Shown piece by piece: positions 2,277 to 23,445 of a stretch of 27,031 bases of DNA. A program made the position numbers and the translations under genes. Below the pieces are notes generated by a model that had not been told where the DNA came from, ran no database searches, and saw only the letters and a program-made list of their open reading frames with translations. This DNA comes from a virus, in IMG/VR virus record IMGVR_UViG_3300010413_000140, positions 1 through 27,031 of that record, one strand, 5' to 3'. The stretch's first letter is position 1, and every line of letters begins with the position of its first letter.

Positions 2277-2285
2277 ATTATAACA
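2277..2285 (-). promoter_or_regulatory. Extended -10 box, leaderless-type
   Basis: The minus strand reads TGTTATAAT, then 5 nt, then the ATG of the 298-aa gene. Transcription would start at or within a base or two of the start codon. No clear TTGACA lies 17 nt upstream; the TGn element may replace it. Confidence 0.5.
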
Positions 2286-2287
2286 TT

Positions 2288-2959
2288 TCAAAAATTAGTC
2301 CCTACGGCTACGCCAGGAGGATAAATCATGCCCGGAACGTGAGTGGCCGTCGCCCCCCCAGAAGTATTATTTACTTTTCCTATTACATCATCCTGATCAT
2401 GGACGATAAACGGATCATACATAATTAAACCGCTTGGGAAATGATCAGGAGAAAACTTGTTGGATAATGCAGTAATTTCGGTTGAGTTCAAAACTCGGTT
2501 CCAGATGGCAAATTCCGCAATATCTCCCTTCCAATAACGATCATTAAAACTATTTTGCAATCCCACTAAAAAATCAAAATTATTACTAGATACATCATTA
2601 AAACCCACCCCCGAACTAGCAACACTACTACCATTTTTATAAAGAGTGGCGGTTGTTTGAGAGTCTAAAGTTAAAATCATACTTAGCCAATTTCCCTGCT
2701 CACCATTAAAAAAAACACTACCATTAATAAATGGAATAGTATCAGCAATATAAATTGACAAATTATCATCACTACCATTGCAAAAGGCCAAAACGCCCGT
2801 GTTATATGGATCATCTAATTTGCAAAATAACGCACTTCCATCGGCATTTCCCACATCATCATTTTTGCACCAACAAGCAATAGTGAGGGTATTTGCTAAC
2901 CAGGAATCTTGGTCGCCAAAATTAGCGGTTTCTCCGCTTGAATTGAAATTAATTGCCAT
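2288..2959 (-). CDS. LamG/concanavalin-like jelly-roll virion protein (223 aa)
   Basis: The sequence matches the laminin-G-like jelly-roll pattern: NFGDQDSWLANTLTIACW near the start, WLSMILTLDSQTTATLYKNG in the middle, and YWKGDIAEFAIWNRVLNSTE followed by ITALSNK towards the end. Such domains bind carbohydrate and are common in phage appendages and capsid decorations, so host-surface glycan binding is likely. ATG at 2957-2959 is preferred to the TTG three codons upstream. It lies 1 nt after the TAA of the preceding gene. The C-terminal 45 residues (YDPFIVHDQDDV...) lie outside the jelly roll. Confidence 0.75.
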   Translation of the reverse strand: MAINFNSSGETANFGDQDSWLANTLTIACWCKNDDVGNADGSALFCKLDDPYNTGVLAFCNGSDDNLSIYIADTIPFINGSVFFNGEQGNWLSMILTLDSQTTATLYKNGSSVASSGVGFNDVSSNNFDFLVGLQNSFNDRYWKGDIAEFAIWNRVLNSTEITALSNKFSPDHFPSGLIMYDPFIVHDQDDVIGKVNNTSGGATATHVPGMIYPPGVAVGTNF

Positions 2960-2960
2960 A

Positions 2961-3326
2961 TTATGCAAAAGCTAAATTTGCCGATCCATAATAATTAGTT
3001 CCATCCCAATATAAACTCACAATGTCGGTACCACTAGAAGTCCAGGGCGGTTCTACTCCGCCAGACCACAGAACAGTGCCAGGCCAAGTAATTGTATGTG
3101 CTCCACCATTAACTAATTTCAAAATTAAATTGCATGGCCCATCAGGAGAAGTAAAAGTATAAGTGACATCATCTGTTACTGTAGATTTATGCTTATTTCC
3201 AGTTGTCCAATTAATAGTGTCTGCCGTACTTGAATTACCATCATCTATTTCTTCATCAAAATATGAATGTTTATTTACCTTCAAATCAACTACTCTACCA
3301 GGATTTCTTGTTACATCACTACTCAT
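2961..3326 (-). CDS. Phage appendage beta-sandwich protein (121 aa)
   Basis: The signature HKSTVTDDVTYTFTSPDGPC, then LILKLVNGGAHTITWPGTVLW and DIVSLYWDGTNYYGS is a recurrent beta-sandwich module of phage tail fibres and fibre-like proteins, in which a TWP motif and a final SLYWDGTNYY strand are typical. Here it is a stand-alone small gene. It starts 2 nt after the stop of the 178-aa gene upstream, and TACAAT lies 5 nt before the ATG, overlapping that gene's last codons. A role in the particle's appendage is inferred from the module and the neighbours. Confidence 0.65.
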   Translation of the reverse strand: MSSDVTRNPGRVVDLKVNKHSYFDEEIDDGNSSTADTINWTTGNKHKSTVTDDVTYTFTSPDGPCNLILKLVNGGAHTITWPGTVLWSGGVEPPWTSSGTDIVSLYWDGTNYYGSANLAFA

Positions 3327-3328
3327 GG

Positions 3329-3865
3329 TTAATTGTAATAAAGATAGCGTACCCCTTCTCCGCTTACGGTCGAATCAACATAAATATTTGCCAGATTGTT
3401 ACTAAAAATATTAATTGAATCACCAGCGTATAAAATGATGCCTGTTCCAGTGGCCTCAGTTGCATCTACCCCAGAAACACCAATAGCAATTAATCCTGTA
3501 TTATCGGTTTGAGCTTGAATCACTGCCTTTTTACAAGCAGTTGATCCAGCCAGTGCTTCATCTGTTCCGGCGGTTGTTACGGTTTTCACGCCATCTCCAG
3601 TTAAAGTCAATCTATCGGTATTAGAATCAATTGCATCTAAAGCCGCATTGTCTGTTGCAGATAAATTGGCCGTCACAGTTCCAGAAACAGTAAAAATAGT
3701 AATTTGATCGCCACTTTCATCAACAATTACCACATCCATCGGATCAGCATTGGTTAATTGTCGTCCAGTAATAGCCAGCGGACTGCGAGTGGCTTTGTCC
3801 GTGGTAGAGTCAACAACGACGACACTGGGAATGAAGTTGGTCGAGCGCGATTCTGGAGTCGGCAT
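3329..3865 (-). CDS. Virion structural protein, fibre-region (178 aa)
   Basis: The N-terminal half carries VVVVDSTTDKATRSPLAITG and PMDVVIVDESGDQITIF, resembling short beta segments found at the front of phage fibre-region proteins. The second half (KKAVIQAQTDNTGLIAIGVS, ILYAGDSINIFSNNL, YVDSTVSGEGVRYLYYN) resembles a small beta-sandwich of the type seen in phage proteins that ends in a conserved VRYLYY strand. It sits among appendage genes. The start ATG lies 6 nt after TATAAT with no Shine-Dalgarno site. The family is not named with certainty. Confidence 0.6.
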   Translation of the reverse strand: MPTPESRSTNFIPSVVVVDSTTDKATRSPLAITGRQLTNADPMDVVIVDESGDQITIFTVSGTVTANLSATDNAALDAIDSNTDRLTLTGDGVKTVTTAGTDEALAGSTACKKAVIQAQTDNTGLIAIGVSGVDATEATGTGIILYAGDSINIFSNNLANIYVDSTVSGEGVRYLYYN

Positions 3866-3871
3866 AAACTA

Positions 3872-3877
3872 ATTATA
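3872..3877 (-). promoter_or_regulatory. TATAAT box, leaderless-type
   Basis: TATAAT on the minus strand ends 6 nt before the ATG of the 178-aa gene and starts 2 nt after the stop of the 54-aa gene. Confidence 0.45.
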
Positions 3878-3879
3878 CC

Positions 3880-4044: not shown

Positions 4045-4380
4045 TTATACCCCCATTTCATGTAAACCATTAAGTTCGGCTGTTCTGGTTTCTCTTACCT
4101 CATCTATTCCTCCCTCATCACTTACCACATAAAAAGTATTAGCATGATCTTTAATTGTTTTGGTAAAGTAATCCAAGAGAATATTGGCCTTCTGTTGAGT
4201 TGTCAGTTCGCTAAATTCAACCAAATCTTCGCCGTTGTAAATATTGCCGTAACCTGCATTGTAAAGATTATGAGAAGCCCTGCTTAAAATGGTATTCATC
4301 TTTGTCTTCTCGGCTATCCAAGTGGCCGTCAAGGTAGAATCGGTAGCTCCTATCTCGTAAGTAATTGCTTTTGAAGCCAT
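4045..4380 (-). CDS. Unknown fibre-region protein (111 aa)
   Basis: The protein is mostly helical by appearance (WIAEKTKMNTILSRASHNLY, then ELTTQQKANILLDYFTKTIK) and ends ETRTAELNGLHEMGV. No family is recognised. It follows the 875-aa fibre gene by 20 nt and could be a small assembly or fibre-associated protein; this is inference from position. The ATG lies 5 nt after TATAAT, without a Shine-Dalgarno site. Confidence 0.65.
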   Translation of the reverse strand: MASKAITYEIGATDSTLTATWIAEKTKMNTILSRASHNLYNAGYGNIYNGEDLVEFSELTTQQKANILLDYFTKTIKDHANTFYVVSDEGGIDEVRETRTAELNGLHEMGV

Positions 4381-4385
4381 AAGTT

Positions 4386-4391
4386 ATTATA
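4386..4391 (-). promoter_or_regulatory. TATAAT box, leaderless-type
   Basis: TATAAT on the minus strand ends 5 nt before the ATG of the 111-aa gene, within the 20-nt gap after the fibre gene. Confidence 0.45.
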
Positions 4392-7028: not shown

Positions 7029-7166
7029 TTAAGCGATTTCAACAATAATTGCATAAGTGGCGGGATTAACTGCTATCGTTACGGGAGTTGCTAGATCAAT
7101 GCTACTAACTCCAATGAGGGTAATTACATTGTTTACATCGAACTGTGCGATATTTCGGATAACCAT
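7029..7166 (-). CDS. 45-aa homologue of the fibre N-terminal module
   Basis: The frame encodes MVIRNIAQFDVNNVITLIGV, then SSIDLATPVTIAVNP, and ends IIVEIA. It aligns with the first 40 residues of the following 875-aa protein, sharing TLIGVSS[IV]DL, TP and IAVNP. It ends with TAA immediately before the ATG of the fibre gene and starts 7 nt after TATAAT. It is either a free-standing attachment domain or one product of a tandem duplication of the fibre's N-terminal module. Confidence 0.75.
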   Translation of the reverse strand: MVIRNIAQFDVNNVITLIGVSSIDLATPVTIAVNPATYAIIVEIA

Positions 7167-7173: not shown

Positions 7174-7179
7174 ATTATA
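7174..7179 (-). promoter_or_regulatory. TATAAT box, leaderless-type
   Basis: TATAAT on the minus strand ends 7 nt before the ATG of the 45-aa gene, probably serving it and the fibre gene. Confidence 0.45.
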
Positions 7180-9354: not shown

Positions 9355-10320
9355 TCAGGTTACGTTATTTACAGACAGTCCCGCATAAGTGCCAGGGTTT
9401 GTATCAACTTTTGGTTCAAAATATAAAATGTTAGAAGCTACCGCCTCCCAATCATCAGCCCCAATTGAAATTTGGCTACCGCTCATTATCATCCAAGCCG
9501 AGGCTGTTTGTGCTGAAAGATCAAAATTAGCGGTAATTTGATCAGCTTTATTCGTCCACTTGGCAATCCAAGTACAATTATTGAACCAATTAAATCCAGA
9601 GCAACCAGTGGTTCCAGTAGACTTAACATGAACTGGGCCAACATTGTCTGCGTTCATCATAAACAAACAATCATGAAAAAGATTTTTGCTTGATCCTACA
9701 AAATCAACTGTGGCATTGGTGGTTGAGCGCTGAATGGTATCGTTGCCAAAAACGCAATTGCGGTAGGTATTCTCATGTGAACCGGTCAAGGTTAAACATC
9801 TTGCGGTGGCATCATCTCCGGCAGTAGCATGTCCAATTCCCTGAAAATGGACGTTTTCAAAATAATTTCTGTCTCCGGTCATATTGACCAAAACATCATT
9901 TGAGGCTTGAGTTGTTTCTAATTTAATATTTTTGAAGACACAACCATTGGCCGAAATTGTAAGACAAGGATCGGTTGAATCAGTTGTAAAATCCACTCTT
10001 GCTCTGGGCCCGATCATAGTCGGAGCAGCATTTCCAATCAAGTGACAATAATCTTTATCCCAAGTTACTGCTGCAGCATCGGTTGTGGCAGCAGTTCCTC
10101 CTGAAAGTAAAACTATAACATCGTGGTTATAAGCTGTAAGTAGTGCCTCTGCAGCGTAAAGGGTAGCTTTTGCATCAGTTGGTTGTCTACCCGCATTGGT
10201 AGTATCATTTCCATTAGTAGGATCAACATAAAATATTCTACCTATATAGGGAATACCAAGTTGATGTTGAATCTCACGAGCATTATCATCTAAGCGAAGA
10301 CTTTGAGTCACTAATACCAT
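9355..10320 (-). CDS. Right-handed beta-helix virion protein (321 aa)
   Basis: After a short helical start, GRIFYVDPTNGNDTTNAGRQ and PTDAKATLYAAEALL form the entry motif of many pectin-lyase-fold phage proteins. The body has repeated short rungs around residues 120-250 (GCVFKNIKLETTQ, RNYFENVHFQGIG, ENTYRNCVFGN, KNLFHDCLFMMN, FNWFNNCTWI), the pattern xFxNxxF of stacked strands. No catalytic pectinase residues are evident, so a decoration or receptor-binding role is more likely than an enzyme. It follows a second beta-helix gene by 27 nt. Its ATG lies 5 nt after TGTTATAAT. Confidence 0.8.
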   Translation of the reverse strand: MVLVTQSLRLDDNAREIQHQLGIPYIGRIFYVDPTNGNDTTNAGRQPTDAKATLYAAEALLTAYNHDVIVLLSGGTAATTDAAAVTWDKDYCHLIGNAAPTMIGPRARVDFTTDSTDPCLTISANGCVFKNIKLETTQASNDVLVNMTGDRNYFENVHFQGIGHATAGDDATARCLTLTGSHENTYRNCVFGNDTIQRSTTNATVDFVGSSKNLFHDCLFMMNADNVGPVHVKSTGTTGCSGFNWFNNCTWIAKWTNKADQITANFDLSAQTASAWMIMSGSQISIGADDWEAVASNILYFEPKVDTNPGTYAGLSVNNVT

Positions 10321-10325: not shown

Positions 10326-10334
10326 ATTATAACA
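10326..10334 (-). promoter_or_regulatory. Extended -10 box, leaderless-type
   Basis: The minus strand reads TGTTATAAT then 5 nt then ATG, the same arrangement as at 2277-2285. It occupies the 27-nt gap between the two beta-helix genes. Confidence 0.5.
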
Positions 10335-11397: not shown

Positions 11398-11533
11398 CTT
11401 TGTTTTCCTTCCTATTTAATTGTTCGGCATCATACTTTCTTTTTGCCGCCATAAAATCACCATAATCCCCGTATTCACTTGCTTGGGAAGCTAATAACTT
11501 TTCTTTTTTTGGTTTTCTTCCTTTTTTAGCCAT
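11390..11533 (-). CDS. Small basic protein (47 aa)
   Basis: The frame from ATG at 11531-11533 encodes MAKKGRKPKKEKLLASQASE and then a helical stretch ending AEQLNRKENKDV. Upstream in-frame codons exist, but they run through an intrinsic terminator, so the short form is preferred. The very basic start suggests nucleic-acid contact or binding to an acidic partner; there is no further evidence. Its end overlaps the first beta-helix gene by 8 nt. Confidence 0.6.
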   Translation of the reverse strand: MAKKGRKPKKEKLLASQASEYGDYGDFMAAKRKYDAEQLNRKENKDV

Positions 11534-11539: not shown

Positions 11540-11562
11540 AAAAAATCCCTCGCAAAGAGGGA
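11540..11562 (-). terminator. Intrinsic terminator after the capsid gene pair
   Basis: On the minus strand CCCTC-TTTGC-GAGGG, flanked by a T-A pair, is followed directly by six T residues (11540-11545). It lies 55 nt after the stop of the 239-aa gene and directly before the 47-aa gene, so it should limit read-through from the highly expressed capsid genes. Confidence 0.8.
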
Positions 11563-11616
11563 AACTCTCTACGACTCTACCTTTCGGCAATGGACTCCTT
11601 TTACAGAACCAAGTCG

Positions 11617-12336: not shown

Positions 12337-12348
12337 GTTTTTATTTTA

Positions 12349-13434
12349 TCAGATTCCGGTAATTCCTGTTCCTTTACCATTGTGCCTGAATGATTTTGGA
12401 ACTAGCTGACCGATTACCGTAAAGAATCCAGCCATTCCCAATTGATCAGGCATCATTTCAAGCGGCTTATAGAACCAACCATTGTATTCACTTGGCATCG
12501 TGTCTGCCCCCACTCCCTCTGTAACCTTAGCCGTACCCAAATTGACTTTTTGAACCTTACCGCGATACTTGGGAGGGACTACTGTTCTACCCATCCAGTC
12601 AAAAGTGTTCTCGTTAAGCATGTACCAGTAACCTGAAGTGGCTGCATCGTCTTTAATTACTGGTCGTCCTCGATAATCAAGGGATGTAAATCCAAGTCGT
12701 CCCTGCATATCTCCTCGGCTCATCGCTTCATCGCCGCGAACTGGAAGAACATTGTAATTATTTCTCAACTGAGGAGCAATTAATTGTCCATAAAGACTCC
12801 AATCAGCTTTTGTGGTTACATTAATTGTTGGTTCTGAACTTGTAAGTCCTGCGCTGGAAACGGCATCGTGAAGAGTATCAAGCTTGGCAAGAGTCATTGT
12901 TCCCCAAGCTGTAGAGGTTGCATTTAGTACTGAGTAGGTGGTTCTTGATTGTCCTCCGATAGTTCCCACATTAGTTCCATCGTCAACGATTGCCTCAAGT
13001 CCAAGCGGTTGATTAGAAGAACCAGTGCTAGAAAAAATTACTGACCCAATTTCCTGTACTGCTTCCTGCGCTGCATCTTCGTAGTTAAAGTCATCTACAT
13101 CAATCGTGCCCGCAGAACCAGCATTGGCTACGCTTTCAAGGAAAATGGAAACATTTGGCTGCACCCCTGCTGCATGCCTATATACTCCAACAATTGTCGT
13201 GTCGGCAGCGGCAAGATCAATGCTTTCCAAAGCCGTTACCCATTGGAACCTACTTGAAGTAGAAACCTTCATGGGTACTTCGTAAGATTTTCCTGAAGGA
13301 AATGGCTTAGCCTTACCCATAAGACGAGAATAATACGATCTGGAGTTCATTACTTGGTCAACAACTTTAGCGTACAATTTACGCTCTGTCGTACCTTCTA
13401 CTCGTTGTGTGTTCTGGATTCCGTCTACTGCCAA
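12349..13434 (-). CDS. Major capsid protein
   Basis: The 361-aa protein has the size, order and sequence character of an HK97-fold coat protein: a helical N-terminus (ERKLYAKVVDQVMNSRSYYS), the strand KSYEVPMKVSTSSRFQWVTA, an extended middle and a C-terminal region (GWFYKPLEMMPDQLGMAGFF). It lies between the scaffold-like gene and a putative decoration gene, as expected. The start is TTG at 13432-13434 with no Shine-Dalgarno site; no ATG is available before residue 29. It is preceded by a strong promoter and a terminator-like hairpin, and followed by the 239-aa gene and then a true terminator. Confidence 0.85.
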   Translation of the reverse strand: MAVDGIQNTQRVEGTTERKLYAKVVDQVMNSRSYYSRLMGKAKPFPSGKSYEVPMKVSTSSRFQWVTALESIDLAAADTTIVGVYRHAAGVQPNVSIFLESVANAGSAGTIDVDDFNYEDAAQEAVQEIGSVIFSSTGSSNQPLGLEAIVDDGTNVGTIGGQSRTTYSVLNATSTAWGTMTLAKLDTLHDAVSSAGLTSSEPTINVTTKADWSLYGQLIAPQLRNNYNVLPVRGDEAMSRGDMQGRLGFTSLDYRGRPVIKDDAATSGYWYMLNENTFDWMGRTVVPPKYRGKVQKVNLGTAKVTEGVGADTMPSEYNGWFYKPLEMMPDQLGMAGFFTVIGQLVPKSFRHNGKGTGITGI

Positions 13435-13457
13435 TGTAATATTTTTTTCTAAAACGC

Positions 13458-13484
13458 AAAAAACCCGACCCCTTTCGGTAGTCG
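13458..13484 (-). terminator. Terminator-like hairpin in the capsid gene leader
   Basis: On the minus strand CGACTACC-GAAA-GGGGTCG forms a stem with one bulged A, one G-U pair and a GAAA tetraloop, then GG and six T residues (13458-13463). It lies only about 15 nt downstream of the predicted transcription start of the capsid promoter and 23 nt before the capsid start. It could end upstream scaffold transcripts or act as an attenuator. A second small hairpin (CGAG-AATATA-CTCG, 13483-13496) overlaps its base. Confidence 0.7.
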
Positions 13485-13504
13485 AGTATATTCTCGTTAG
13501 ATAA

Positions 13505-13534
13505 ATAATAGAAGATAAATATTTACTTTGTCAA
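13505..13534 (-). promoter_or_regulatory. Sigma-70 promoter for the capsid gene
   Basis: The minus strand has TTGACA at 13529-13534, an 18-nt spacer and TATTAT at 13505-13510. The -35 overlaps the TGA stop of the AP2 mini-ORF. It is the best complete -35/-10 pair in the window, about 70 nt ahead of the capsid start. Confidence 0.7.
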
Positions 13535-13647
13535 GTATTTAAACGAGCAAATTCTCCATGTAATCTAATTGCAGCCTCATTATAAGATATTTTTGCCTCT
13601 TTTTTGTTTTTGAAATATCCCAAAAAAACATTTTTTTCACTTCCCAT
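13531..13647 (-). CDS. AP2-domain mini-ORF, likely remnant of a homing endonuclease
   Basis: The 38-codon frame includes VFLGYFKNKKEAKISYNEAA and ends RLHGEFARLNT. This is the second half of the AP2 DNA-binding domain, whose usual pattern is LGxFxxxxEAxxAYxxAAxxxxGxFAxLN. In phages that domain commonly forms the C-terminus of HNH homing endonucleases. No HNH part is visible, because the upstream DNA codes for the scaffold-like protein. ATG at 13645-13647 overlaps the end of that gene. It may be a decayed leftover of an endonuclease that once sat before the capsid gene, or a tiny DNA-binding protein. Confidence 0.65.
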   Translation of the reverse strand: MGSEKNVFLGYFKNKKEAKISYNEAAIRLHGEFARLNT

Positions 13648-14443
13648 CCTTAATTTGATCAATTGATTTGTTGTGAATATCCCAATATGAATAATCATCG
13701 CCACCTGACTGTTGACTTACTCCCTTCTTACCAAAACTAACAGGCGCATCGGCTCCAGGTGGTTCTGGGTCTTCATAATGCTCGTAGTAAACCAATTTAA
13801 TAGAAGTAACTGGCTGTTCCCCCTGCGCCTGTCTTTTGTCACCAATTTCTTTCATCTTCCCAAATAACTTAATACGTGCTTGTTTGCCTGGATCGTTAGG
13901 ATCATTTTCATCTTTTATGGGGGGGATTTTGCCGTCTTCCTCCAACTCTTTCAGCTCATTATCCCAATAATCATTCCATTTTTTGTTTTCTTCTTTCGCC
14001 TCTCGTTCCTGTTCTTTTTGAGACTCGGCAACCTCTTTATCCACCTGCTCTTTTTTCCAGATTGCTAAGTCCGCCGAATATTCAGCTATTTCTTTGTAAC
14101 TTTTGGGATTTCGGTTTTCTTTTTCCCAGGGAGGAATCATCCCCTCCTCTTTTGCCTGTTTTCCATCCTTCTCATCCATTCCCAGAGCTTCAGAAATTTT
14201 ACTTAAAATATTTTGTTGAGTTTCGCTCATCACGTTCTGCTTAAACTCTTCTAAATCAAATTCCTGTTCTGTTTCTTCGACAGGAACTTCTTCCTCTGGG
14301 GGTGTCTCAGTTTCTTTTTCCTCTTCCTGGGGCTCAACCGACTCTTCTTCTAATTTTTCCGTTTGCTCTTCTTCCTGTACTTCTTCTTCGACCTGAGCTT
14401 CCTCTTTTACTTCTTCTGCTGGAGTTTTTTTGTCATCAGCCAT
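13637..14443 (-). CDS. Putative scaffolding protein
   Basis: The 268-aa protein is extremely acidic in its first 65 residues (runs of E, such as KEEAQVEEEVQEEEQTEKLE), then helical and charged (FKQNVMSETQQNILSKISEA, KEVAESQKEQEREAKEENKK), ending with a polar tail (SQQSGGDDYSYWDIHNKS). Size, charge, helicity and position between portal and capsid fit a phage head scaffold, which guides coat assembly and then leaves. No protease is encoded nearby. Sequence families for scaffolds are poorly conserved, so the call rests on character and context. Confidence 0.75.
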   Translation of the reverse strand: MADDKKTPAEEVKEEAQVEEEVQEEEQTEKLEEESVEPQEEEKETETPPEEEVPVEETEQEFDLEEFKQNVMSETQQNILSKISEALGMDEKDGKQAKEEGMIPPWEKENRNPKSYKEIAEYSADLAIWKKEQVDKEVAESQKEQEREAKEENKKWNDYWDNELKELEEDGKIPPIKDENDPNDPGKQARIKLFGKMKEIGDKRQAQGEQPVTSIKLVYYEHYEDPEPPGADAPVSFGKKGVSQQSGGDDYSYWDIHNKSIDQIKDGK

Positions 14444-14480: not shown

Positions 14481-14639
14481 TTAAGTATTACGCATCTTTT
14501 GCCCGCTTTCAGAAGCATATCTTGCGCGTACCGAAGCCATTGCCTTGTCTTTAGAATCGGATTTACCCACTACTTTTCCAGTTGTCTTTTTGACAATTAA
14601 CCATTTCCCGTTTTTTCCCTTTTTTACTTTCCAAGGCAT
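14481..14639 (-). CDS. Small basic protein (52 aa)
   Basis: The frame encodes MPWKVKKGKNGKWLIVKKTT and continues GKVVGKSDSKDKAMASVRAR, ending YASESGQKMRNT. The start resembles a small beta hairpin (WKVKKGKNGKWLIVKK), followed by a helix with the KAMASVRARYA pattern found in small phage proteins of the head module. It is strongly basic, so DNA or RNA contact is possible but not shown. It lies between the transglycosylase and scaffold genes, filling a 200-nt gap. TATTAT lies 6 nt before the ATG. Confidence 0.75.
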   Translation of the reverse strand: MPWKVKKGKNGKWLIVKKTTGKVVGKSDSKDKAMASVRARYASESGQKMRNT

Positions 14640-14651
14640 ATCAAAATAATA

Positions 14652-15353
14652 TCATAAATTATGAAATCTTCCCCAATTCCAACGACTAGTTTCCCACCAA
14701 TTAATCCTTCCTTTGGCTAAAGCCAATGCCGCCGCTCGTGCATTGGCCTCTGGATTGGTTTTGGGAGTGTTTTCAGGTAAACCAAGCTCTTGCATCATTT
14801 GTTTCCAAGAAGAATCAATAAATTGAAATAATCCTCCGGCAGAGCTTTCATTGCTTTGTTTACTTGGATCAAGTGAGCTTTCTGCAAACGCAATGTCTTG
14901 AAGGAGATCAGGGTCAACACCAAATTCCTGAGCAGCACTTTGAATTACGTTTTTAACTTGTTGATATCTTTCTCCTTGCAACTTCTTGATTTCTGGGTTT
15001 TTACCTTCAACCTTTGGTTTTGGGACTACTTGCGGTGCTCCTGCCACAGGAGATGGACTTATTGCCGGCTCTCTGTTTGTAAAAATGTCAGATTCAACCG
15101 CCATTTCAGGAACCTGATCGCTTTTTAATCGTTGCGCAAGATATTGAGGGAAAGCAGCCGCCTGATCTAAAATATTGGGTCTAATTATTTTGGTTTCTTT
15201 AACCATTCCTCCCCCTGGTTGTGATTTAAATGTTGATTCTTTTTCGCCAATAAGATCCAAAAAAAGCTTTTTTAAAAACGATTCACTGGGTTGTTGATTT
15301 TCTTTTCTTAAACGACTAGACAGTGCTTTTGAAAAATCATTATCGTTATTCAT
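14652..15353 (-). CDS. Virion-associated lytic transglycosylase (SLT-like)
   Basis: Residues ~128-233 form a soluble-lytic-transglycosylase-type domain: GVDPDLLQDIAFAESSLDP carries the catalytic Glu (E158) in an ESS motif, and SSAGGLFQFIDSSW is the conserved GLxQF segment. The ~120-residue N-terminal part is low-complexity and helical with a proline-rich linker (AISPSPVAGAPQVVPKPKVE). The enzyme cleaves the glycan backbone of peptidoglycan. Placed between portal and scaffold it is more likely a particle component for DNA entry than the lysis endolysin. There is no signal peptide. It starts 1 nt after the portal stop. Confidence 0.85.
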   Translation of the reverse strand: MNNDNDFSKALSSRLRKENQQPSESFLKKLFLDLIGEKESTFKSQPGGGMVKETKIIRPNILDQAAAFPQYLAQRLKSDQVPEMAVESDIFTNREPAISPSPVAGAPQVVPKPKVEGKNPEIKKLQGERYQQVKNVIQSAAQEFGVDPDLLQDIAFAESSLDPSKQSNESSAGGLFQFIDSSWKQMMQELGLPENTPKTNPEANARAAALALAKGRINWWETSRWNWGRFHNL

Positions 15354-15354: not shown

Positions 15355-17484
15355 TCATAAATTTCTGGGTGATCCCTGTGCTAATTCTGGTGCTTGCGTG
15401 GGGACATTAGCGGTATTCTGAGCACTAGGGTTTTGTGGGTTAATTGTTCCATCCTCTTGTCCGAATTGTGCAGCAGCAGGATTTTCTGCTTGTCCCTGTT
15501 GCGCGATTTGCACAACCTCTTGAGCAAACTGCACAATCAATTGCTGAATTTCAGGTAGGAGTTGGGCAAACTCTGGGCTTTGAATGAATTGGTTTAAAGT
15601 ATCAAGGTATTCTGGTGTTGGCTGTTGTGGAATATTTGGCATTTGACCTTGCTGGAGTTGCTGGATATCCAATAACGCCTGTTGCCCATCGGCCCCATTT
15701 AGTTGATTAGCCATTTGTTGAGAATTTTCCAACCCCATTCCATATTTTCCCAAATACTCTGCTGGAGATTGAAAGAACATCATTAGTTTCAATGTTCTAC
15801 CCATTGGGTCACTCGCCCCTACATCTTTGTAAAAAGTATACGGATCAATCAATTTAAGTTTTGCCATCTCCAACGCTCTTCTTTCTGCCTTGATTTTGTC
15901 TGTACCAGAGGCAGTAGCGATTACTTGCATCCCATCGTTAATCATGTCTCGTTTAAACTCATATGCCGTTGCCAATCCATCCTCACCCAATACTTCAATG
16001 AAGTCAGACTCACTCTTTCTCAAACGGGTAAGCTGCAGATCAGCCCGTACCATCTTCTCGGCGGCGTAAGTAATAGTTTCATCCACCAAATTATCATGTA
16101 GGGTAAAATTCCCCTCTCTGGCAATTTGATTGCTGGTTGCCACGTCTGTTTGTAACTCTCCACCAATTGCATTAACCCCCGCTTTGGCTTGCATCCTAGT
16201 GCGAGTATCGTCATAATCCTTAAACTCTTGGGCAGTAGGCAAATCAGGAGGAATAACCCCATGAGTTTTTCGCACATCACCGTCCACTAACAAATCTTCG
16301 TCGGGATCATTTAAGTCCATTTCCTCAATGTCTTCAGCCCTCAAACCAGCCTCCTTAGAAAAGACGTGTTTGGTTCTATTTCTAAGCTTCTCCACCATCA
16401 CCTTTCCCCGCTCATCCAGGGTATATTGCATCAAAATGAGCTGTTCAATACGGGAGGTAGCACTGATTGGAGCCTTACCTAATTGATCGGATACCATGAA
16501 AATATATGGCTTCTCCGGTTGCTTGAAATAATTACGGTAAAAAGTCTCTTCTCTAAATCCCTGGATTTGCTGATCATTTAAGACCGATTCTCGCACTTGC
16601 TGTTCAGTGAGCATTTCTTTGTAAGAAAAGAGTTTTTTCTCTCCCCCCCAATCCCAATTGGGATCACGCATCTTGTGAAGAATGAGATCGTGGTATTTCC
16701 AAGCCACGCCCTCAATCCTCTCCCATTCCTCTTCTACCTTGTTGTACCAAGTAAACCAAACCTCCCAGGGATGAACAATTGTCGCCAATCCCTTTTCCGG
16801 TGGCTTATCAAATTTATCAAAATTCAAACCATCCTTCTTCGCCATTTGTAAGATATCCTTTTCTTTCTTGGGAAAACGAACAATCATCTCCTTTATAGAC
16901 GTGTGTAATCGCTCTCCAATCATGTCCATCCCGCTTGCCTCGTGAGTGCGAGAAAAAGCATCCAATACCAAATCCTCTCCAAGTGGATTGGTATATTCAA
17001 TATCTCCGTTGTCACCCTTCTCAGGATTCCAAAGCCATTTAATACAACCAAAGTAATCAATCGGTTCACGCTTGAAAGCAAGTGTTAAGGCCATTCTTCG
17101 CTCACGAGATTTGCTGCGCGCATCAATTACTTTGCTGACATCTTCTGCAATCTTTTTAGCCTCGTCTCCCTCCTGCCCAGGAGTAACAATGAAATCAGGC
17201 ATTTTGCTGACTGACACCGCTTTGATTTGTCGCTCTGATTCCCAAATCATATTGTCAAGCCATTTCCCTTCGTAATCTTTTAAGGCATCAATATCTATCT
17301 GTTGTCCAAGATAGTATTTTTCGTTCTGCTCTCTCTTTTTCTTCAGATCATACTTTTTCTCAAACTCTTTTTCGTTCTCTTTGAGCCGATCATTCAATAT
17401 TTCCACCAACTCTTTGTCTTTAATATCCAAAGTGAGAGCATCTCGCACAATTACGGGGTCTTTTGGAGCAGCTTCGTCTCTCAT
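15355..17484 (-). CDS. Portal protein
   Basis: The 709-aa protein follows the terminase and has typical portal features: a charged helical N-terminus (LKENEKEFEKKYDLKKKREQ), a wing with FGCIKWLWNPEKGD and HPWEVWFTWYNKV, a region NRTKHVFSKEAGL, long helices (QTDVATSNQIAREGNFTLHD) and a glutamine-rich C-terminal tail (QQALLDIQQLQQGQMPNIPQ). Its size is large for the family and closer to short-tailed phage portals. It forms the dodecameric ring through which DNA enters and leaves. The ATG lies 6 nt after TATAAT with no Shine-Dalgarno site. Confidence 0.88.
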   Translation of the reverse strand: MRDEAAPKDPVIVRDALTLDIKDKELVEILNDRLKENEKEFEKKYDLKKKREQNEKYYLGQQIDIDALKDYEGKWLDNMIWESERQIKAVSVSKMPDFIVTPGQEGDEAKKIAEDVSKVIDARSKSRERRMALTLAFKREPIDYFGCIKWLWNPEKGDNGDIEYTNPLGEDLVLDAFSRTHEASGMDMIGERLHTSIKEMIVRFPKKEKDILQMAKKDGLNFDKFDKPPEKGLATIVHPWEVWFTWYNKVEEEWERIEGVAWKYHDLILHKMRDPNWDWGGEKKLFSYKEMLTEQQVRESVLNDQQIQGFREETFYRNYFKQPEKPYIFMVSDQLGKAPISATSRIEQLILMQYTLDERGKVMVEKLRNRTKHVFSKEAGLRAEDIEEMDLNDPDEDLLVDGDVRKTHGVIPPDLPTAQEFKDYDDTRTRMQAKAGVNAIGGELQTDVATSNQIAREGNFTLHDNLVDETITYAAEKMVRADLQLTRLRKSESDFIEVLGEDGLATAYEFKRDMINDGMQVIATASGTDKIKAERRALEMAKLKLIDPYTFYKDVGASDPMGRTLKLMMFFQSPAEYLGKYGMGLENSQQMANQLNGADGQQALLDIQQLQQGQMPNIPQQPTPEYLDTLNQFIQSPEFAQLLPEIQQLIVQFAQEVVQIAQQGQAENPAAAQFGQEDGTINPQNPSAQNTANVPTQAPELAQGSPRNL

Positions 17485-17490: not shown

Positions 17491-17496
17491 ATTATA
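17491..17496 (-). promoter_or_regulatory. TATAAT box, leaderless-type, for the portal gene
   Basis: The minus strand reads TATAAT, then 6 nt, then the portal ATG. It sits just after the stop of the zinc-ribbon gene. TCAAGA lies 17 nt upstream as a poor -35. Confidence 0.45.
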
Positions 17497-17498: not shown

Positions 17499-17756
17499 TT
17501 AGAGAAATATCTTTCTTGAGATAAACTTCCTGAGTAAATAGTTGTGTTGACACCTGGAGTTGGAACATTGAAGCAATACCGGAATCTCGGTAGGTACTTC
17601 TCCCGGTTCGATTTCAACCACCCGCCCCTTGAAACGGAAAAGGGGGTTGCCACAAATAGGACATTTCCATAATACCCAGGTTCCTGTCTGATTCTCAATT
17701 AATGTCAGCGTGGTTACTTCCACATCTTTTACCTCCGTTAATGTATTTATTTTCAT
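17499..17756 (-). CDS. Zinc-ribbon protein (85 aa)
   Basis: The central part carries two cysteine pairs: CPIC (residues ~32-35) and CSNSRC (~63-68), separated by a beta segment (FRFKGRVVEIEPG). This is the layout of small zinc ribbons such as the Com-like proteins found next to phage packaging genes, where one member is an RNA-binding translational activator. Here the partner is unknown. The ATG overlaps the terminase stop (ATGA), so it is translationally coupled to the terminase and ends just before the portal. Confidence 0.75.
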   Translation of the reverse strand: MKINTLTEVKDVEVTTLTLIENQTGTWVLWKCPICGNPLFRFKGRVVEIEPGEVPTEIPVLLQCSNSRCQHNYLLRKFISRKIFL

Positions 17757-19219
17757 ACTGCTCGATACGTTCTTCCTTTTTTTGGTATTGTAGCAAAAGC
17801 ATCCAGATCCACCTTATCAATCATTGGTTGCTTGTGCTTGGGTGGTTGCTTTTGTTTTACTCCACCGATTTTGGTTGAATCTACCCATTTCAAACCAGAG
17901 AGAAAGTAGGAAACGTCATCAACCGCATGATCTTCAAGCGTGGTATCGAGGTCATCAGGCTTACTTTCATCAGGAATCATCATTGGAATAGTACGAATCA
18001 AATTGGGGTTATCTTTTGTAATCATCCAATATGGTAACCCATCTATTGCTACTCGCATCCAGTTCTCCATATTGGCCCACCGCCCAACTCTATTTCTTGA
18101 CCCCATTGCAAATACCGGTCTGATACCACGCAACTCCTCAAACGCCTTAATCATCTGGTCGGTAATTGACATCGAACCGTCTGACTGGAGGTTCATCATC
18201 GAAGGATCAGTCCAGATTTTTCTCACACGATCATAATCAAATTTGGTAATTAATGTTTCGATCTGTTCATATGGAGATTTACCGGTACTGTACTCTTCTT
18301 TGAAAGTTACTACTCGCGTAAACTTAATTCCTTCGTAATCCACTGGAATGAGAGTATGAAGATGAGAGGAAAATGGCGCAGTTCTTCCCCAATCCATTGA
18401 TCCTTCCACCACATATTCGTTCAAGGGAACAATACTTTTGTCCAAGCCGTGTGTGGCAAAACTCCAACGGGGAAAAAACCTTCCTGCTCCCTCCTCAAAA
18501 GAAGCCATATACTCCTGATTAAACCAAGAGAGCTTACCCTTTTCTTCGGCATCAGATCGTTTTTCATTAATGTAATCAACAAAAGCCTTTCTTTCTTTTG
18601 TTCCTTCTGCCCAAGCCATGTTATCGTAGCTTGTAAAATGCCAGGTTTCCCAATCATCTTTAAGCGCTATCTTCTTCTCGAAATTGGGGATAACATGTTG
18701 ATGATCTCCCTGCAAAGCAAAATCGTGAAACCAATTTAATCCCTTTGGTGTACCAACGTAAATCATTCGATGGTTGGGTGAATCAGCAAGAGCCGGTTCA
18801 ATCGTATCAAATGCTTCTGGCTTCACATCAGCAACCTCATCCCAGCCAATAAAATCGATTCCACTTCCCCGCAAACTATCGTAATTATCACTTCCCTTCA
18901 GTCTCACCCAGCTATCGGTGTGCCTAAAATAGAGCGAGAGTTCGCTTTTGTCAGCCTTACAGATACCAGCTTGAACGTAGGGCATGAAGTATTTGGTAAT
19001 ATCTGGATCAACCCAGTAAATCTCTTTTGCCTGACGATACAAAGGTAAAATGATCCATGCAATCTGTCGTGGTTTTTGAAGAGCTAGAGCAATCGCTTCG
19101 TTCAATAGTAGTGCGCTTTTACCAAATCTTCTCCCGCATACTGCCACCCGATACTTAGCCTTACTTCTGTGGATTAGTCGTTGGTTCTGGTGTGGGGTAT
19201 ACAGTTTGGGTATTTCCAT
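17753..19219 (-). CDS. Terminase large subunit (packaging ATPase/nuclease)
   Basis: The ATPase half shows Walker A GRRFGKS (residues 29-35), Walker B DFIGWDE (122-128) with the catalytic Glu, and the coupling motif YVGTPKG (154-160). The RNase H-like nuclease half shows its acidic residues at GSMDWGRT (D276), IWTDPS (D338) and LEDHAVDD (D430/D434-435). It pumps phage DNA into the prohead through the portal and cuts it at the end of packaging. At 488 aa it is a normal length. The start overlaps the small subunit gene by 59 nt, unusually long, but YTPHQNQRLIHRS close behind the ATG is the expected beginning. Confidence 0.95.
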   Translation of the reverse strand: MEIPKLYTPHQNQRLIHRSKAKYRVAVCGRRFGKSALLLNEAIALALQKPRQIAWIILPLYRQAKEIYWVDPDITKYFMPYVQAGICKADKSELSLYFRHTDSWVRLKGSDNYDSLRGSGIDFIGWDEVADVKPEAFDTIEPALADSPNHRMIYVGTPKGLNWFHDFALQGDHQHVIPNFEKKIALKDDWETWHFTSYDNMAWAEGTKERKAFVDYINEKRSDAEEKGKLSWFNQEYMASFEEGAGRFFPRWSFATHGLDKSIVPLNEYVVEGSMDWGRTAPFSSHLHTLIPVDYEGIKFTRVVTFKEEYSTGKSPYEQIETLITKFDYDRVRKIWTDPSMMNLQSDGSMSITDQMIKAFEELRGIRPVFAMGSRNRVGRWANMENWMRVAIDGLPYWMITKDNPNLIRTIPMMIPDESKPDDLDTTLEDHAVDDVSYFLSGLKWVDSTKIGGVKQKQPPKHKQPMIDKVDLDAFATIPKKGRTYRAV

Positions 19220-19667
19220 CTAATTGAAGCTCTTTGTCTATTTTAACTGTTACATTTCCAGAATGTTCAGTTTCTTTTTTGTCCACCATGTCAGTTAAAT
19301 TAATAGCCACAAATTTAGCAAAGATCGGATTATACAAACCGTTGAGTCCATTTTCAATTAGAAACCACTTCCTTAATTCCTTCGCATGCGTAAAAGCGTC
19401 TGAAAACTCCTCGTATTTTTTAACCCAACGATAGAAAGTATCGTAATGAATATTTACTTTTTTACAAAACTCTCTTACTGTAGGTATTCGATGAGGTAAA
19501 CGCTTGAAATCTATCCATTTGACTTTACCTTGATCTTCTCCCTTATTCGGCTTGAAATAATGTGGTAACTCTATTTCATAAAAAGGCTCTTGCTCAAAAA
19601 AGAGAATTAACTCTCTACAATATTTAGGATCATATTTACTTGGTCGCCCTGCTTTATTTTTGCCCAT
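19161..19667 (-). CDS. Terminase small subunit
   Basis: The 168-aa protein begins MGKNKAGRPSKYDPKYCREL, the start common to many small terminases. It has a helix-turn-helix at about residues 62-90 (PTVREFCKKVNIHYDTFYRW, then VKKYEEFSDAF), a core helix region (NGLYNPIFAKFVAINLTDM) and a polar tail. It recognises the packaging site and regulates the large subunit. Immediate linkage to the ATPase supports the call. A weak AAGAGA precedes the ATG. Confidence 0.9.
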   Translation of the reverse strand: MGKNKAGRPSKYDPKYCRELILFFEQEPFYEIELPHYFKPNKGEDQGKVKWIDFKRLPHRIPTVREFCKKVNIHYDTFYRWVKKYEEFSDAFTHAKELRKWFLIENGLNGLYNPIFAKFVAINLTDMVDKKETEHSGNVTVKIDKELQLDGNTQTVYPTPEPTTNPQK

Positions 19668-19687: not shown

Positions 19688-20215
19688 CTACTTATAATCA
19701 AACATCAGATAATCATTATAATAAAAACTATTTAACTTTCCTAATGCTTCCTTGCTAATCTCATACTCCTGTTTATTTGATTTATTAACATGAGGGAGTG
19801 GCGTATCTACGGCTAAAACTTTCGATATATGTTCCCAATCCTTCTCCAAGTTCTCATACTTGCCCGTGAAATCCATCAAGTTTTCACTAGCGGGTAATGC
19901 CACGAATCTCCACTGTGGTTGAAAATAGATATTATCCGCCCAATCTCGATTCAAAATGTACTCTGAAATATTCTCTCCCTTCAGCTTTTGTGCGAAATAT
20001 CCCGAAACAAAGCGATCAATGGGGTGACGAACGAAGGCAAACTTAAAAACCTCATCAAATTTTGGCAGTCCCATCGAATATTGGTTAAGAAAATAATAAT
20101 ATTTATCTATCTTTGCGTGACCCGGTGGGTTGCCTAAAACTCTTGAAATCGAAGTGCTAGCGGTTCTAGGTATCGAAATATTTATATAATTTCTTTTGTA
20201 ATCATATACACTCAT
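19688..20215 (-). CDS. Sulfotransferase-family protein (175 aa)
   Basis: Two PAPS-binding signatures are clear. The 5'-phosphosulfate loop is ISIPRTASTSISRVL (residues ~13-27) and the 3'-phosphate site is FAFVRHPIDRFVSGYF (~59-74), with R63 and S71 as the expected contacts. This matches the Sulfotransfer_2 type of Golgi-like carbohydrate sulfotransferases, though at 175 aa the gene is shorter than typical members. It would transfer sulfate from PAPS to a sugar or other acceptor, perhaps a host surface polymer or a virion glycan; the target is not visible. The ATG overlaps the previous stop (ATGA). Confidence 0.85.
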   Translation of the reverse strand: MSVYDYKRNYINISIPRTASTSISRVLGNPPGHAKIDKYYYFLNQYSMGLPKFDEVFKFAFVRHPIDRFVSGYFAQKLKGENISEYILNRDWADNIYFQPQWRFVALPASENLMDFTGKYENLEKDWEHISKVLAVDTPLPHVNKSNKQEYEISKEALGKLNSFYYNDYLMFDYK

Positions 20216-21237: not shown

Positions 21238-21238
21238 T

Positions 21239-21577
21239 TCATTTTGTCCTCTCCCATCCTCCCACCGGCTCAACATCACCCCACACTGGCTTCGCCTTTT
21301 TAATCTCGCTTTCTGTATGTATTCCTTCTTTTACCATAGCTTTGGCCCTTTTAGGATATGCTTCTACAAACTCTTTTGAAAGCTGCCCATCACGATATCG
21401 CTGGATTGTACTTTTGAAATATTCTTTGCGGCTGGTTTTAATCTCATCGCTGGTAAATTCTATATTTTGGTACGGCTTAGAAAAAGTTCTTTGACGTGTG
21501 TGGCAAATTCTACAGGGCAATATTCCGTACTGTTTGTCTTGCGTCGCTTTATTTACTCCACAAACCGGACAGTTCAT
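21239..21577 (-). CDS. Zinc-finger protein (112 aa)
   Basis: The N-terminus holds CPVCGVNKATQD and LPCRICHTRQ, a four-cysteine zinc ribbon in the first ~30 residues. A helical region follows (FTSDEIKTSRKEYFKSTIQR, then YRDGQLSKEFVEAYPKRAKA), which is typical of small phage proteins with a ribbon-plus-helix layout. It may bind DNA or RNA. The ATG overlaps the GroEL stop (ATGA), so it is coupled to the chaperonin gene. Confidence 0.7.
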   Translation of the reverse strand: MNCPVCGVNKATQDKQYGILPCRICHTRQRTFSKPYQNIEFTSDEIKTSRKEYFKSTIQRYRDGQLSKEFVEAYPKRAKAMVKEGIHTESEIKKAKPVWGDVEPVGGWERTK

Positions 21578-23151
21578 TTCTCCTCAGTTTCATGCGGAAT
21601 AATAGCATCAATAGTCATTGCCTGAATCGCAACGCTTACCGCATTAATAATTGCCGAAGTTAATACGCCAGCCGGATCAACTATTCCTTCTTTGACGAGA
21701 TCATATATTTTTCCATCAGCAACATTTACACCCATTTGCTTACCCTGTCCCCTCAGTCGTTCGATATATTCTCCAGGGTCTATTCCCGCGTTTGTCAAAA
21801 GCTTCTTGAATGGAGCCTTCAAAGCATTTTTCATAATCTCTGCCGCATTATCAGTTCCGCCCTTGAGATTAATATATTCAACCAAATTAAGCAGCGTCAC
21901 TTCACCACCAGGAACAATCCCTGTCTTTACCGCCGTTCGTGTGGCTTCCACCGCATCTTTTACTCGTTCTTTTCTTTCGTTCATCTCCACCGGCGTTGCT
22001 CCTCCCACCTTGATTACCGCCACTGAGCCAACGAGTCTACCGATTCGCTCTCTCAACTTGGCAATCTCATAGGCACTATCTTCTTGAGCAATCTCATTGG
22101 TAATTGCCTTGATTCTGGTTTTAATTTCCTTCTTGTTTCCCTTACCACCACGAATGATTGTCGCGTCCTTAGTCGCCACAATCTTTTGAGCGTAACCCAA
22201 ATGTTCCAGTTTAACATCGTTTAACTTTATGCCTGAATCCTCACTAATTACTGTTGCTCCGGTAAGCGCAGCAACATCATACAAAAATGCCTTTTGTATA
22301 TTTTCAAACAAGGGAGCCTGAACACAAAGCACGTTCATCTTACCGTTCATTTTATTCACCACAAAACTTGGGATTACATTGCCCTCAAAGTCCTGTGCCA
22401 TTACAAACAAGGTTTTACCATGTGGAATCAGTTCATTTGCCAAAAAATTCTGCAATTCAACAAAATCACTTAAAACTTTGTCAGTGATTAATACTCGCGC
22501 ACCTTCCAATACCGCCGTCTGATCTTGAGGATTAGTGATAAACAAAGGCACCCTCCATCCCTGGTCAATTTGAAAACCATCCTGCATTTCCACCAATGTA
22601 TCGTGACTATTACTTTCCTCTACCGTAGATATTCCATCTTCCCCAATCTTGTCTATTGTTTCGCCAATCATTTTTCCTAATTCTTCACTAGCAGAGGAAA
22701 TAATGGCAATCTGTATTTTCTTCTCTACTGTCTTTATCTTTTGCGCCTCAGAATTAATCTGCTCTATCAATGCGTCCCGCCATCTCTCTAGTCCTTCTCT
22801 TAGTTCCATTGCGTTCACTCCCGCCGCAATAATTCTGTTTGCCTCCACCGCAATATTTCTACCTAAAATCGTTACCAAAGTAGTTCCATCACCCACCTCA
22901 TCAACCTGTTTTTTAACGGCTTGCAGTAAGATATCCGCTCCTAGCTTTTTGTATTTATCTGTTACAGTAATAGCTTTGGCAACTTCATAACCATCGTGAA
23001 TTACTGATGGCTCAAATCCTCGATCAATCACCACGTTATTTCCACGCGGGCCAAGTGTCGTACCCACCGCTTTATAGACAATCTCAATTCCCTCTAAGAT
23101 TTTGTCTCTGGCTTCCCTGCCGAAAATGATTTCGTGTTTATTTTTTTTCAT
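21574..23151 (-). CDS. groEL: Phage-encoded chaperonin GroEL (divergent)
   Basis: At 525 aa it is near full length. The ATPase core is kept: TTLGPRG (31-37), HDG with D53, VGDGTT with D88, and RVKDAVEATRTAV with D399, matching E. coli D52, D87 and D398. The C-terminal core pattern GIVDPAGVLTSAIINAVSVA is also kept. Differences are many: GGG near residue 415 reads GGE; the apical substrate-binding segment YLSPYF reads WRVPLF; the usual GFGDRR loop reads LFENIQ; and there is no GGM tail. It should form a protein-folding ring, probably for phage proteins. AGGAG lies 7 nt before the ATG. It overlaps groES by 14 nt. Confidence 0.92.
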   Translation of the reverse strand: MKKNKHEIIFGREARDKILEGIEIVYKAVGTTLGPRGNNVVIDRGFEPSVIHDGYEVAKAITVTDKYKKLGADILLQAVKKQVDEVGDGTTLVTILGRNIAVEANRIIAAGVNAMELREGLERWRDALIEQINSEAQKIKTVEKKIQIAIISSASEELGKMIGETIDKIGEDGISTVEESNSHDTLVEMQDGFQIDQGWRVPLFITNPQDQTAVLEGARVLITDKVLSDFVELQNFLANELIPHGKTLFVMAQDFEGNVIPSFVVNKMNGKMNVLCVQAPLFENIQKAFLYDVAALTGATVISEDSGIKLNDVKLEHLGYAQKIVATKDATIIRGGKGNKKEIKTRIKAITNEIAQEDSAYEIAKLRERIGRLVGSVAVIKVGGATPVEMNERKERVKDAVEATRTAVKTGIVPGGEVTLLNLVEYINLKGGTDNAAEIMKNALKAPFKKLLTNAGIDPGEYIERLRGQGKQMGVNVADGKIYDLVKEGIVDPAGVLTSAIINAVSVAIQAMTIDAIIPHETEEK

Positions 23152-23434
23152 TTAAGACTCCTCTAAGATTATCAAATGAAATAATATTATGCTCCTTGCC
23201 ATTTAAGTATATTTTTTCAATTCCGTATGGTTTAAAAACAATACTATCTCCTTTTTTCACGTCAACACCATATACTTGTCCTGATTGATGAATTGTCTCT
23301 TTACCTACCTTGACCACAATACCAATGTTTGACGGCGTACCTTCCTCGTCGGCCACCAGAATAACGTCATTTTTCGTTTGGGTTACTTCTACAAGAATAA
23401 AACCTGGAGCTGGAGCAAAACCTATAACGGCCAT
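23138..23434 (-). CDS. groES: Phage-encoded co-chaperonin GroES
   Basis: The 98-aa protein has the GroES pattern: a start with APGFILVEV, a mobile-loop region (TQTKNDVILVADEEG, residues ~18-32), SNIGIVVKVG, VKKGDSIVFKPYG and a final ISFDNLRGVL. In bacterial GroES the loop carries GGIVL, whose hydrophobic triplet docks on GroEL; here VIL (24-26) takes that place without the GG. It caps the GroEL ring encoded just downstream. TATATT lies 5 nt before the ATG and there is no Shine-Dalgarno site. Confidence 0.9.
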   Translation of the reverse strand: MAVIGFAPAPGFILVEVTQTKNDVILVADEEGTPSNIGIVVKVGKETIHQSGQVYGVDVKKGDSIVFKPYGIEKIYLNGKEHNIISFDNLRGVLNEKK

Positions 23435-23439
23435 ATATT

Positions 23440-23445
23440 AATATA
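23440..23445 (-). promoter_or_regulatory. TATATT box, leaderless-type, for groES
   Basis: The minus strand reads TATATT, then 5 nt, then the groES ATG. It lies in the 32-nt gap after the membrane peptide gene and would drive the groES-groEL-zinc finger group. Confidence 0.35.

What the first reader, a model, noticed from the sequence alone, without database searches (positions are those of the whole stretch)
2277..23445. TATAAT boxes placed 5-8 nt before start codons: a phage built on leaderless mRNAs
Seen in the sequence: a -10-like hexamer lies just before the ATG, with no Shine-Dalgarno site, at 2271 (5 nt), 3326 (TACAAT, 5), 3865 (6), 4380 (5), 7166 (7), 10320 (5), 12336 (TAAAAT, 6), 14639 (TATTAT, 6), 17484 (6) and 23434 (TATATT, 5); the gene at 26383 shows the same with a TTGACA (8 nt). 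Two are the identical extended form TGTTATAAT. A bacterial -10 ends about 6-7 nt before the transcription start, so the start codon would be the first bases of the mRNA. Genome surveys describe TATAAT-like signals at this spacing as the mark of leaderless genes in some bacterial phyla, notably Actinobacteria and Deinococcus-Thermus. Inference: many virion genes, even within gene clusters, have their own promoter and use leaderless translation, and the host tolerates this well. AT-rich start regions alone could mimic part of the pattern.
Basis: partly seen in the sequence, partly recalled or inferred. Interest (0 to 1): 0.72.

Follow-up and report, generated by a model that had tools for sequence, protein, structure and literature searches.

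The report
Phage genes starting inside their promoters
In this uncultured phage and dozens of its relatives, many genes carry a bacterial promoter box exactly six or so letters before the start codon, so their messages almost certainly begin at the start codon itself; this way of working is known, but its heavy use in this phage family, whose hosts may be ultra-small Patescibacteria, is new.

Summary
In the window, exact TATAAT lies 5-8 nt before the first ATG of 6 of 43 genes, against 0.26 in dinucleotide shuffles (0 of 2000 reach it). A model trained only on relatives recovers all ten listed sites plus a missed one (9036), but not 26383. In 10 relatives TATAAT at 5-7 nt is the top hexamer of all (35 seen, 0.84 expected), ahead of Shine-Dalgarno AAGGAG. 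In 57 further contigs 79 copies sit at exactly 6 nt, with about two per position elsewhere. The box is an extended -10 (TGnTATAAT) without a conserved -35. It nearly excludes Shine-Dalgarno: 6 of 186 against 351 of 1026.

Best reading: gene-by-gene extended -10 promoters give leaderless mRNAs for about 13% of called genes (about a quarter in the window), mostly on the virion-gene strand. Other genes use Shine-Dalgarno or neither; the capsid gene has a structured leader. No transcript data exist.

The host is unknown; the only catalogued phages matching capsid and portal are a TM7 (Saccharibacteria) phage and one unassigned phage. The kind is known; the family, its extent and its possible Patescibacteria link are new.

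The parts
2277..2282 (-). -10 box TATAAT (TGT before it), 5 nt before ATG of tail-type gene 1375-2271
   Evidence: (score 12.3); orthologues carry the signal in 10 of 22 contigs
3332..3337 (-). -10 box TACAAT, 5 nt before ATG of tail-fibre-like gene 2961-3326; the upstream gene's stop lies in the spacer
   Evidence: score 6.8; phrog_9017
3872..3877 (-). -10 box TATAAT, 6 nt before ATG of gene 3329-3865
   Evidence: score 10.3; orthologue in G001 has TGATATAAT at 6 nt
4386..4391 (-). -10 box TATAAT, 5 nt before ATG of gene 4045-4380 (no TG)
   Evidence: score 5.2, weaker
7174..7179 (-). -10 box TATAAT, 7 nt before ATG of 45-aa gene 7029-7166
   Evidence: score 7.8
   Evidence: score 8.1
10326..10331 (-). 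-10 box TATAAT (TGT before it), 5 nt before ATG of gene 9355-10320
   Evidence: score 12.3
12343..12348 (-). -10 box TAAAAT, 6 nt before ATG of gene 11617-12336; the TGA stop codon of the capsid gene forms the TG of the extended -10
   Evidence: (score 11.9); orthologue G001 has TATAAT at 6 nt
14646..14651 (-). -10 box TATTAT after TGA, 6 nt before ATG of 52-aa gene 14481-14639
   Evidence: score 10.3
17491..17496 (-). -10 box TATAAT, 6 nt before ATG of portal-like gene 15355-17484
   Evidence: score 7.4; signal kept at 10 of 26 orthologous starts
23440..23448 (-). -10 region TAATATATT (TAATAT at 8 nt or TATATT at 5 nt) before ATG of GroES gene 23138-23434
   Evidence: score 6.1; GroES starts carry the signal in 10 of 17 contigs, GroEL starts in 0 of 18
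26392..26420 (-). TTGACA-17-TACATT promoter-like site 8 nt before ATG of gene 26156-26383; different class, inconclusive
   Evidence: (score -0.8)
12349..13434 (-). major capsid protein gene (TTG start here, ATG in relatives); not leaderless-type
   Evidence: (phrog_9953, 1.4e-24)
13457..13534 (-). capsid-gene leader: TTGACA (13534-13529), TATTAT (13510-13505), hairpin (about 13487-13463) and T-run
15355..17484 (-). portal-like protein (no family hit; homologue annotated 'portal protein' in MW202566)
17753..19219 (-). terminase large subunit
   Evidence: phrog_2, 1.6e-35
21574..23151 (-). GroEL, Shine-Dalgarno-led

Best explanation
Roughly a quarter of the window's genes are each preceded by their own extended -10 promoter (TGnTATAAT, no -35), read by a bacterial-type (sigma-A/sigma-70) RNA polymerase. 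Because the box ends 5-8 nt (mode 6) before the ATG, transcription starts at or within a nucleotide or two of the A of the start codon, and the mRNA is translated as leaderless message by ribosomes that recognise a 5'-terminal AUG. The signals sit in the 10-20 nt gaps between late genes, sometimes sharing letters with the upstream stop codon, so that a gene in a cluster gets a transcript of its own. The other genes use Shine-Dalgarno, coupling or neither; the capsid gene uses a promoter with a structured leader. SHOWN: motif, spacing, TG extension, absence of Shine-Dalgarno, recurrence at orthologous starts across a phage family. INFERRED: use as promoters, the 5' end at the AUG, leaderless translation, use by the host's polymerase.
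For: Window enrichment over shuffles, anagrams and internal ATGs. Unbiased hexamer-by-spacer search in 10 relatives not used to state the hypothesis: TATAAT at 5-7 nt ranks first, 35 against 0.84, p about 1e-43. In 57 further contigs: 79 exact boxes at 6 nt, 18-19 at 5 and 7, about 2 elsewhere. T before the box in 35 of 40 and G in 29 of 40, no -35. A 6-nt gap puts the A of ATG at the normal +1 (established promoter geometry). These starts almost lack Shine-Dalgarno (6/186 against 351/1026) and rarely overlap the upstream gene (5% against 30%). Gene-specific conservation: GroES 10/17, GroEL 0/18, small gene after terminase 15/24, portal 10/26, capsid 0/26. Benchmarks: Thermus phage phiYS40 shows a TATAAT-like peak at exactly 6 nt (14 of 161 genes); T4 does not. 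No sigma factor (PF04542) in 18 records, while 10 of 14 control genomes ring. [quoted passage not shown]
Against: No 5' end has been mapped. The -1 base is only slightly more often a pyrimidine at these starts than at Shine-Dalgarno starts (76% against 68%, p=0.046). The signal is patchy: contigs G021, G024, G027, G005 and G010 have 0-1 such starts. In the window itself several boxes lack the TG (3326, 3865, 4380, 7166, 17484). Readthrough from upstream promoters would also put these start codons inside longer messages. Gene calls are mechanical ORFs.
Confidence: 0.82

Rival explanations
1. The boxes are real promoters, but most translation of these genes comes from longer polycistronic late messages, where the AU-rich, unstructured stretch before the AUG suffices for Shine-Dalgarno-independent initiation; the leaderless transcripts are a minor supplement.
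For: The genes stand in one-directional clusters; nearly half the ORFs have neither signal and must start some other way; starts without Shine-Dalgarno in unstructured mRNA are known (PMC3121790, title and abstract).
Against: It does not explain why Shine-Dalgarno is specifically missing where the box is present, nor the single-nucleotide sharpness of the spacing.
Confidence: 0.12
2. The A/T-rich sequence is a translation signal (Kozak-like, as in Bacteroidetes) and not a promoter.
For: Position close to the AUG; Flavobacterium uses Kozak-like start contexts without Shine-Dalgarno (PMC6847099, title and abstract).
Against: Only TATAAT and not its anagrams is enriched, apart from the overlapping ATAATT and TTATAA; the TG extension lies two bases further upstream; the same box also stands ahead of Shine-Dalgarno leaders in relatives.
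Confidence: 0.03
3. The boxes are late promoters read by a phage sigma factor or phage RNA polymerase, as with the TATAAATA late promoters of T4.
For: Nearly all lie on the virion-gene strand and lack a -35.
Against: The motif is the ordinary TGnTATAAT; no sigma-70 region-2 domain in 18 records. The single-subunit polymerase search was uninformative because its control did not ring, and a divergent gp55-like factor would be missed.
Confidence: 0.08
4. Chance or AT-rich start regions.
For: The window is 60% A+T.
Against: 0 of 2000 shuffles reach the count; relatives and further contigs show the same peak.
Confidence: 0.005

Closest known systems
Leaderless ('TA-led') genes of bacteria, as surveyed in PMC3160421
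   Same: TATAAT-like signal about 10 bp upstream of the start and no Shine-Dalgarno; TG before the box in low-GC genomes, as here
   Different: That survey covers bacterial and archaeal genomes; here it is a phage family, with the boxes mainly at head, portal, tail and GroES genes
Thermus phages phiYS40 and P23-45
   Same: P23-45 middle and late promoters are of the extended -10 class (PMC7403470). My scan of phiYS40 shows a TATAAT-like peak at exactly 6 nt before starts. Leaderless late mRNAs in these phages: from memory, papers not held
   Different: Unrelated phages and host, far larger genomes; in phiYS40 Shine-Dalgarno hexamers dominate and exact TATAAT is rare, whereas TATAAT is the top signal here
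TM7 phage DolZOral124_53_65 (MG269973) and phage cthkR962 (MW202566)
   Same: Only catalogued phages with related capsid (29-30%) and portal (24-26%); 39 kb; both encode GroEL
   Different: They start genes mostly by Shine-Dalgarno; at most one TATAAT start
phage lambda cI
   Same: mRNA starting at AUG (named as a leaderless mRNA in PMC9031893)
   Different: One repressor gene, not a set of virion genes

Membership tests
Bacterial leaderless (TA-led) gene | TATAAT-like signal about 10 bp upstream of the start codon | tested here: met
Bacterial leaderless (TA-led) gene | no Shine-Dalgarno at the same start | tested here: met
   6 of 186 against 351 of 1026
Bacterial leaderless (TA-led) gene | mRNA 5' end at the start codon | not testable with these tools
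   no transcript data
Extended -10 sigma-70 promoter | TG one base upstream of TATAAT | tested here: met
   T 35/40, G 29/40; TG at 73% of 186. In the window 6 of 11 boxes have it, the GroES one only in its 8-nt reading
Extended -10 sigma-70 promoter | no need of a -35 element | tested here: met
   best -35 matches no better than at random positions
Extended -10 sigma-70 promoter | recognised by host sigma-A RNA polymerase | not testable with these tools
   host unknown; no phage sigma found
T4-type late promoter | TATAAATA with leader of ordinary length | tested here: not met
   motif is TATAAT at 6 nt; T4 itself shows TAAATA at 26-28 nt
T4-type late promoter | gp55-like sigma factor | tested here: inconclusive
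   PF04542 absent in 18 records, but gp55 is divergent
Phages of Saccharibacteria/Patescibacteria | homology to a phage assigned to such a host | tested here: met
   capsid 29% over 98%, portal 26% over 74% to TM7 phage
Phages of Saccharibacteria/Patescibacteria | CRISPR spacer, prophage or culture link for this phage | tested here: inconclusive
   only genome hit is a phage-sized contig with terminal repeat in a Brocadia MAG, whose own contigs lack the start signal; spacers not available

The most novel reading that the evidence does not exclude
A widespread phage family of Patescibacteria makes many of its virion proteins from gene-by-gene leaderless mRNAs read by host sigma-A polymerase, while the capsid gene is controlled separately by a promoter followed at once by a terminator-like hairpin (attenuation or antitermination). 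This would imply that Patescibacteria ribosomes translate leaderless messages well.
Probability: 0.3. Interest if true: 0.72.

Novelty: new member of a known kind. Interest (0 to 1): 0.52.

Why it matters
Leaderless translation is usually studied in cellular genomes and in a few model phage genes. Here a whole group of uncultured, about 40-kb, mostly GroEL-bearing phages shows it from sequence alone, with single-nucleotide spacing and with orthologous genes that switch between leaderless-type and Shine-Dalgarno starts. It gives gene finders a start signal to use in such phages, a way to test leaderless use in hosts that cannot be cultured, and, if the hosts are Patescibacteria, a handle on how those bacteria start translation.

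Tried and rejected
AT-richness or chance: rejected. Pyrimidine at -1 as independent proof of a transcription start: first looked strong (33/40), but Shine-Dalgarno starts show nearly the same (68%), so it was dropped. Brocadia as host: the only genome hit is a 39,780-bp contig with a 144-bp terminal repeat, so not an integrated prophage, and the Brocadia contigs show no TATAAT start signal (0 of 89 genes). GroEL gave no host hint. tRNA and Rfam searches of the window were empty. Single-subunit RNA polymerase search uninformative. Papers on Patescibacteria phages searched say nothing on promoters at starts or leaderless genes. The Berdygulova 2011 P23-45 paper and a phiYS40 paper are not held.
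Full report
WHAT THE WINDOW IS. The 27,031-bp window is a whole IMG/VR record, a fragment of a tailed phage with all main genes on the - strand: terminase small (19161-19667) and large subunit (17753-19219), portal-like (15355-17484), transglycosylase (14652-15353), scaffold-position (13637-14443) and major capsid (12349-13434) genes, tail genes towards the left end, GroES and GroEL (23138-23434, 21574-23151) and a sulfotransferase. G+C is 40%.

CHECK OF THE OBSERVATION. Every listed box is present at the stated spacing. TATAAT occurs 14 times on the coding strand; six copies lie 5-7 nt before a start, where about 0.07 are expected. Shuffles that keep dinucleotides give 0.26 exact and 1.66 near matches, against 6 and 10 seen; none of 2000 shuffles reaches either number. 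Of the 20 anagrams of TATAAT, the real one is the most frequent. The site at 26383 is of another type; 9036 was missed.

INDEPENDENT TEST IN RELATIVES. Relatives were fetched by capsid, portal and terminase and then by a capsid alignment, which gave 62 viral contigs. An unbiased count of all hexamers at all spacings in ten relatives puts TATAAT at 5-7 nt first (35 seen, 0.84 expected) and the Shine-Dalgarno AAGGAG next (23 seen, 0.58 expected). In 57 further loci with 1080 genes (a few overlap the first set of contigs), exact TATAAT by spacing is 18 at 5 nt, 79 at 6, 19 at 7, 10 at 8, 12 at 9, and about 2 elsewhere. Of 40 boxes in relatives, 35 have T and 29 have G at the extended -10 positions; no -35 is conserved. 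A matrix trained on relatives alone then finds the window's sites.

HOW IT LIKELY WORKS. A -10 box ending 6 nt before the A of ATG places the normal transcription start on that A (established promoter geometry). These starts also lack Shine-Dalgarno (6 of 186, against 351 of 1026 other ATG starts), seldom overlap the upstream gene, and lie in short gaps (median 21 nt). In 17 of 186 the stop codon of the upstream gene is itself the triplet TGA or TAG in front of the box, as at 12336. Orthologous genes differ in which signal they use, yet some genes keep to one: GroES is leaderless-type in 10 of 17 and GroEL in 0 of 18; the small gene after the terminase in 15 of 24; capsid in 0 of 26. Over 27 contigs, 186 of 1471 called ORFs have the leaderless signal (score 6 or more), nearly all on the virion-gene strand, and some contigs have almost none. 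The best mechanism is a set of gene-by-gene extended -10 promoters that yield leaderless mRNAs, next to ordinary Shine-Dalgarno genes. The promoter step is strongly supported by sequence; the 5' end, the leaderless translation and the polymerase are inferred.

BENCHMARKS. The same script on Thermus phage phiYS40 gives a peak of TATAAT-like boxes at exactly 6 nt (14 of 161 genes); T4 gives none there but shows its late TAAATA far upstream. P23-45 middle and late promoters are of the extended -10 class (PMC7403470). No sigma-70 region-2 domain was found in 18 phage records.

HOST. Among 50,697 catalogued phages only two match the capsid and the portal: a TM7 (Saccharibacteria) phage from a dolphin mouth and an unassigned spring phage, at 24-30% identity, both with GroEL. 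Both start genes mainly by Shine-Dalgarno. This makes a Patescibacteria host plausible for the window (my estimate about one half) but not shown; nothing supports Actinobacteria or Deinococcus-Thermus. The one hit among bacterial genomes is a phage-sized contig in a Brocadia bin, most simply a binning error.

CAPSID LEADER (side finding). In front of the capsid gene, most relatives have a strong promoter (16 of 26, against 231 of 1423 other genes), then about 20-30 nt, then a terminator-like hairpin with T-run (19 of 26, against 114 of 1427), then the start codon; the stem sequences differ widely but pair. Attenuation, antitermination or a protective 5' hairpin would all fit; this was not resolved.

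NOVELTY. Leaderless genes with this signal are known in bacteria (PMC3160421) and for some phage genes; I found no paper in the library describing it for these phages or for Patescibacteria. It is a new member of a known kind, well supported at sequence level and directly testable.

Noticed in passing
window 13457-13534 (- strand), and MCP upstream regions of relatives G001-G004, G008, G010-G015, G017, G018, G022-G026: Capsid gene preceded by a promoter, then a terminator-like hairpin with T-run just before the start codon; structure kept while the stem sequence changes. In many relatives a motif like AATAGG lies between promoter and hairpin.
   Followed up: partly
window 11546-11574, gene start at 11533 (- strand): A second gene whose ATG follows directly on a terminator-like hairpin and T-run (GAGGGATTTTTTAATAAA-ATG), like the capsid gene of G001.
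   Followed up: no
window 13434: The capsid gene seems to start with TTG here (TTGGCAGTAGACGGA) where close relatives have ATG.
   Followed up: no
window 24306-24614: 15-bp tandem repeat, about 20 copies, encoding a pentapeptide-repeat-like protein (24096-24782); a long ORF is also open on the opposite strand.
   Followed up: no
window 26794-27031: 12-bp tandem repeat, about 20 copies, encoding a QVWDQVRD-type repeat protein that runs off the contig end.
   Followed up: no
window 21574-23434 and most relatives: Small (about 40 kb) phages carry GroEL, found in 14 of 16 further viral contigs checked, with GroES in many.
   Followed up: partly
window 19688-20215: Sulfotransferase gene (PF03567, phrog_3347) next to the terminase genes.
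   Followed up: no
L097 / G011 contig C224, 39780 bp: A complete-looking phage genome of this family (144-bp terminal repeat) binned as a scaffold of Candidatus Brocadia sp. WS118.
   Followed up: partly
G000 against G001: Capsid (84%) and portal (75%) are close but the terminase is only about 33-38% identical, which suggests module exchange.
   Followed up: no
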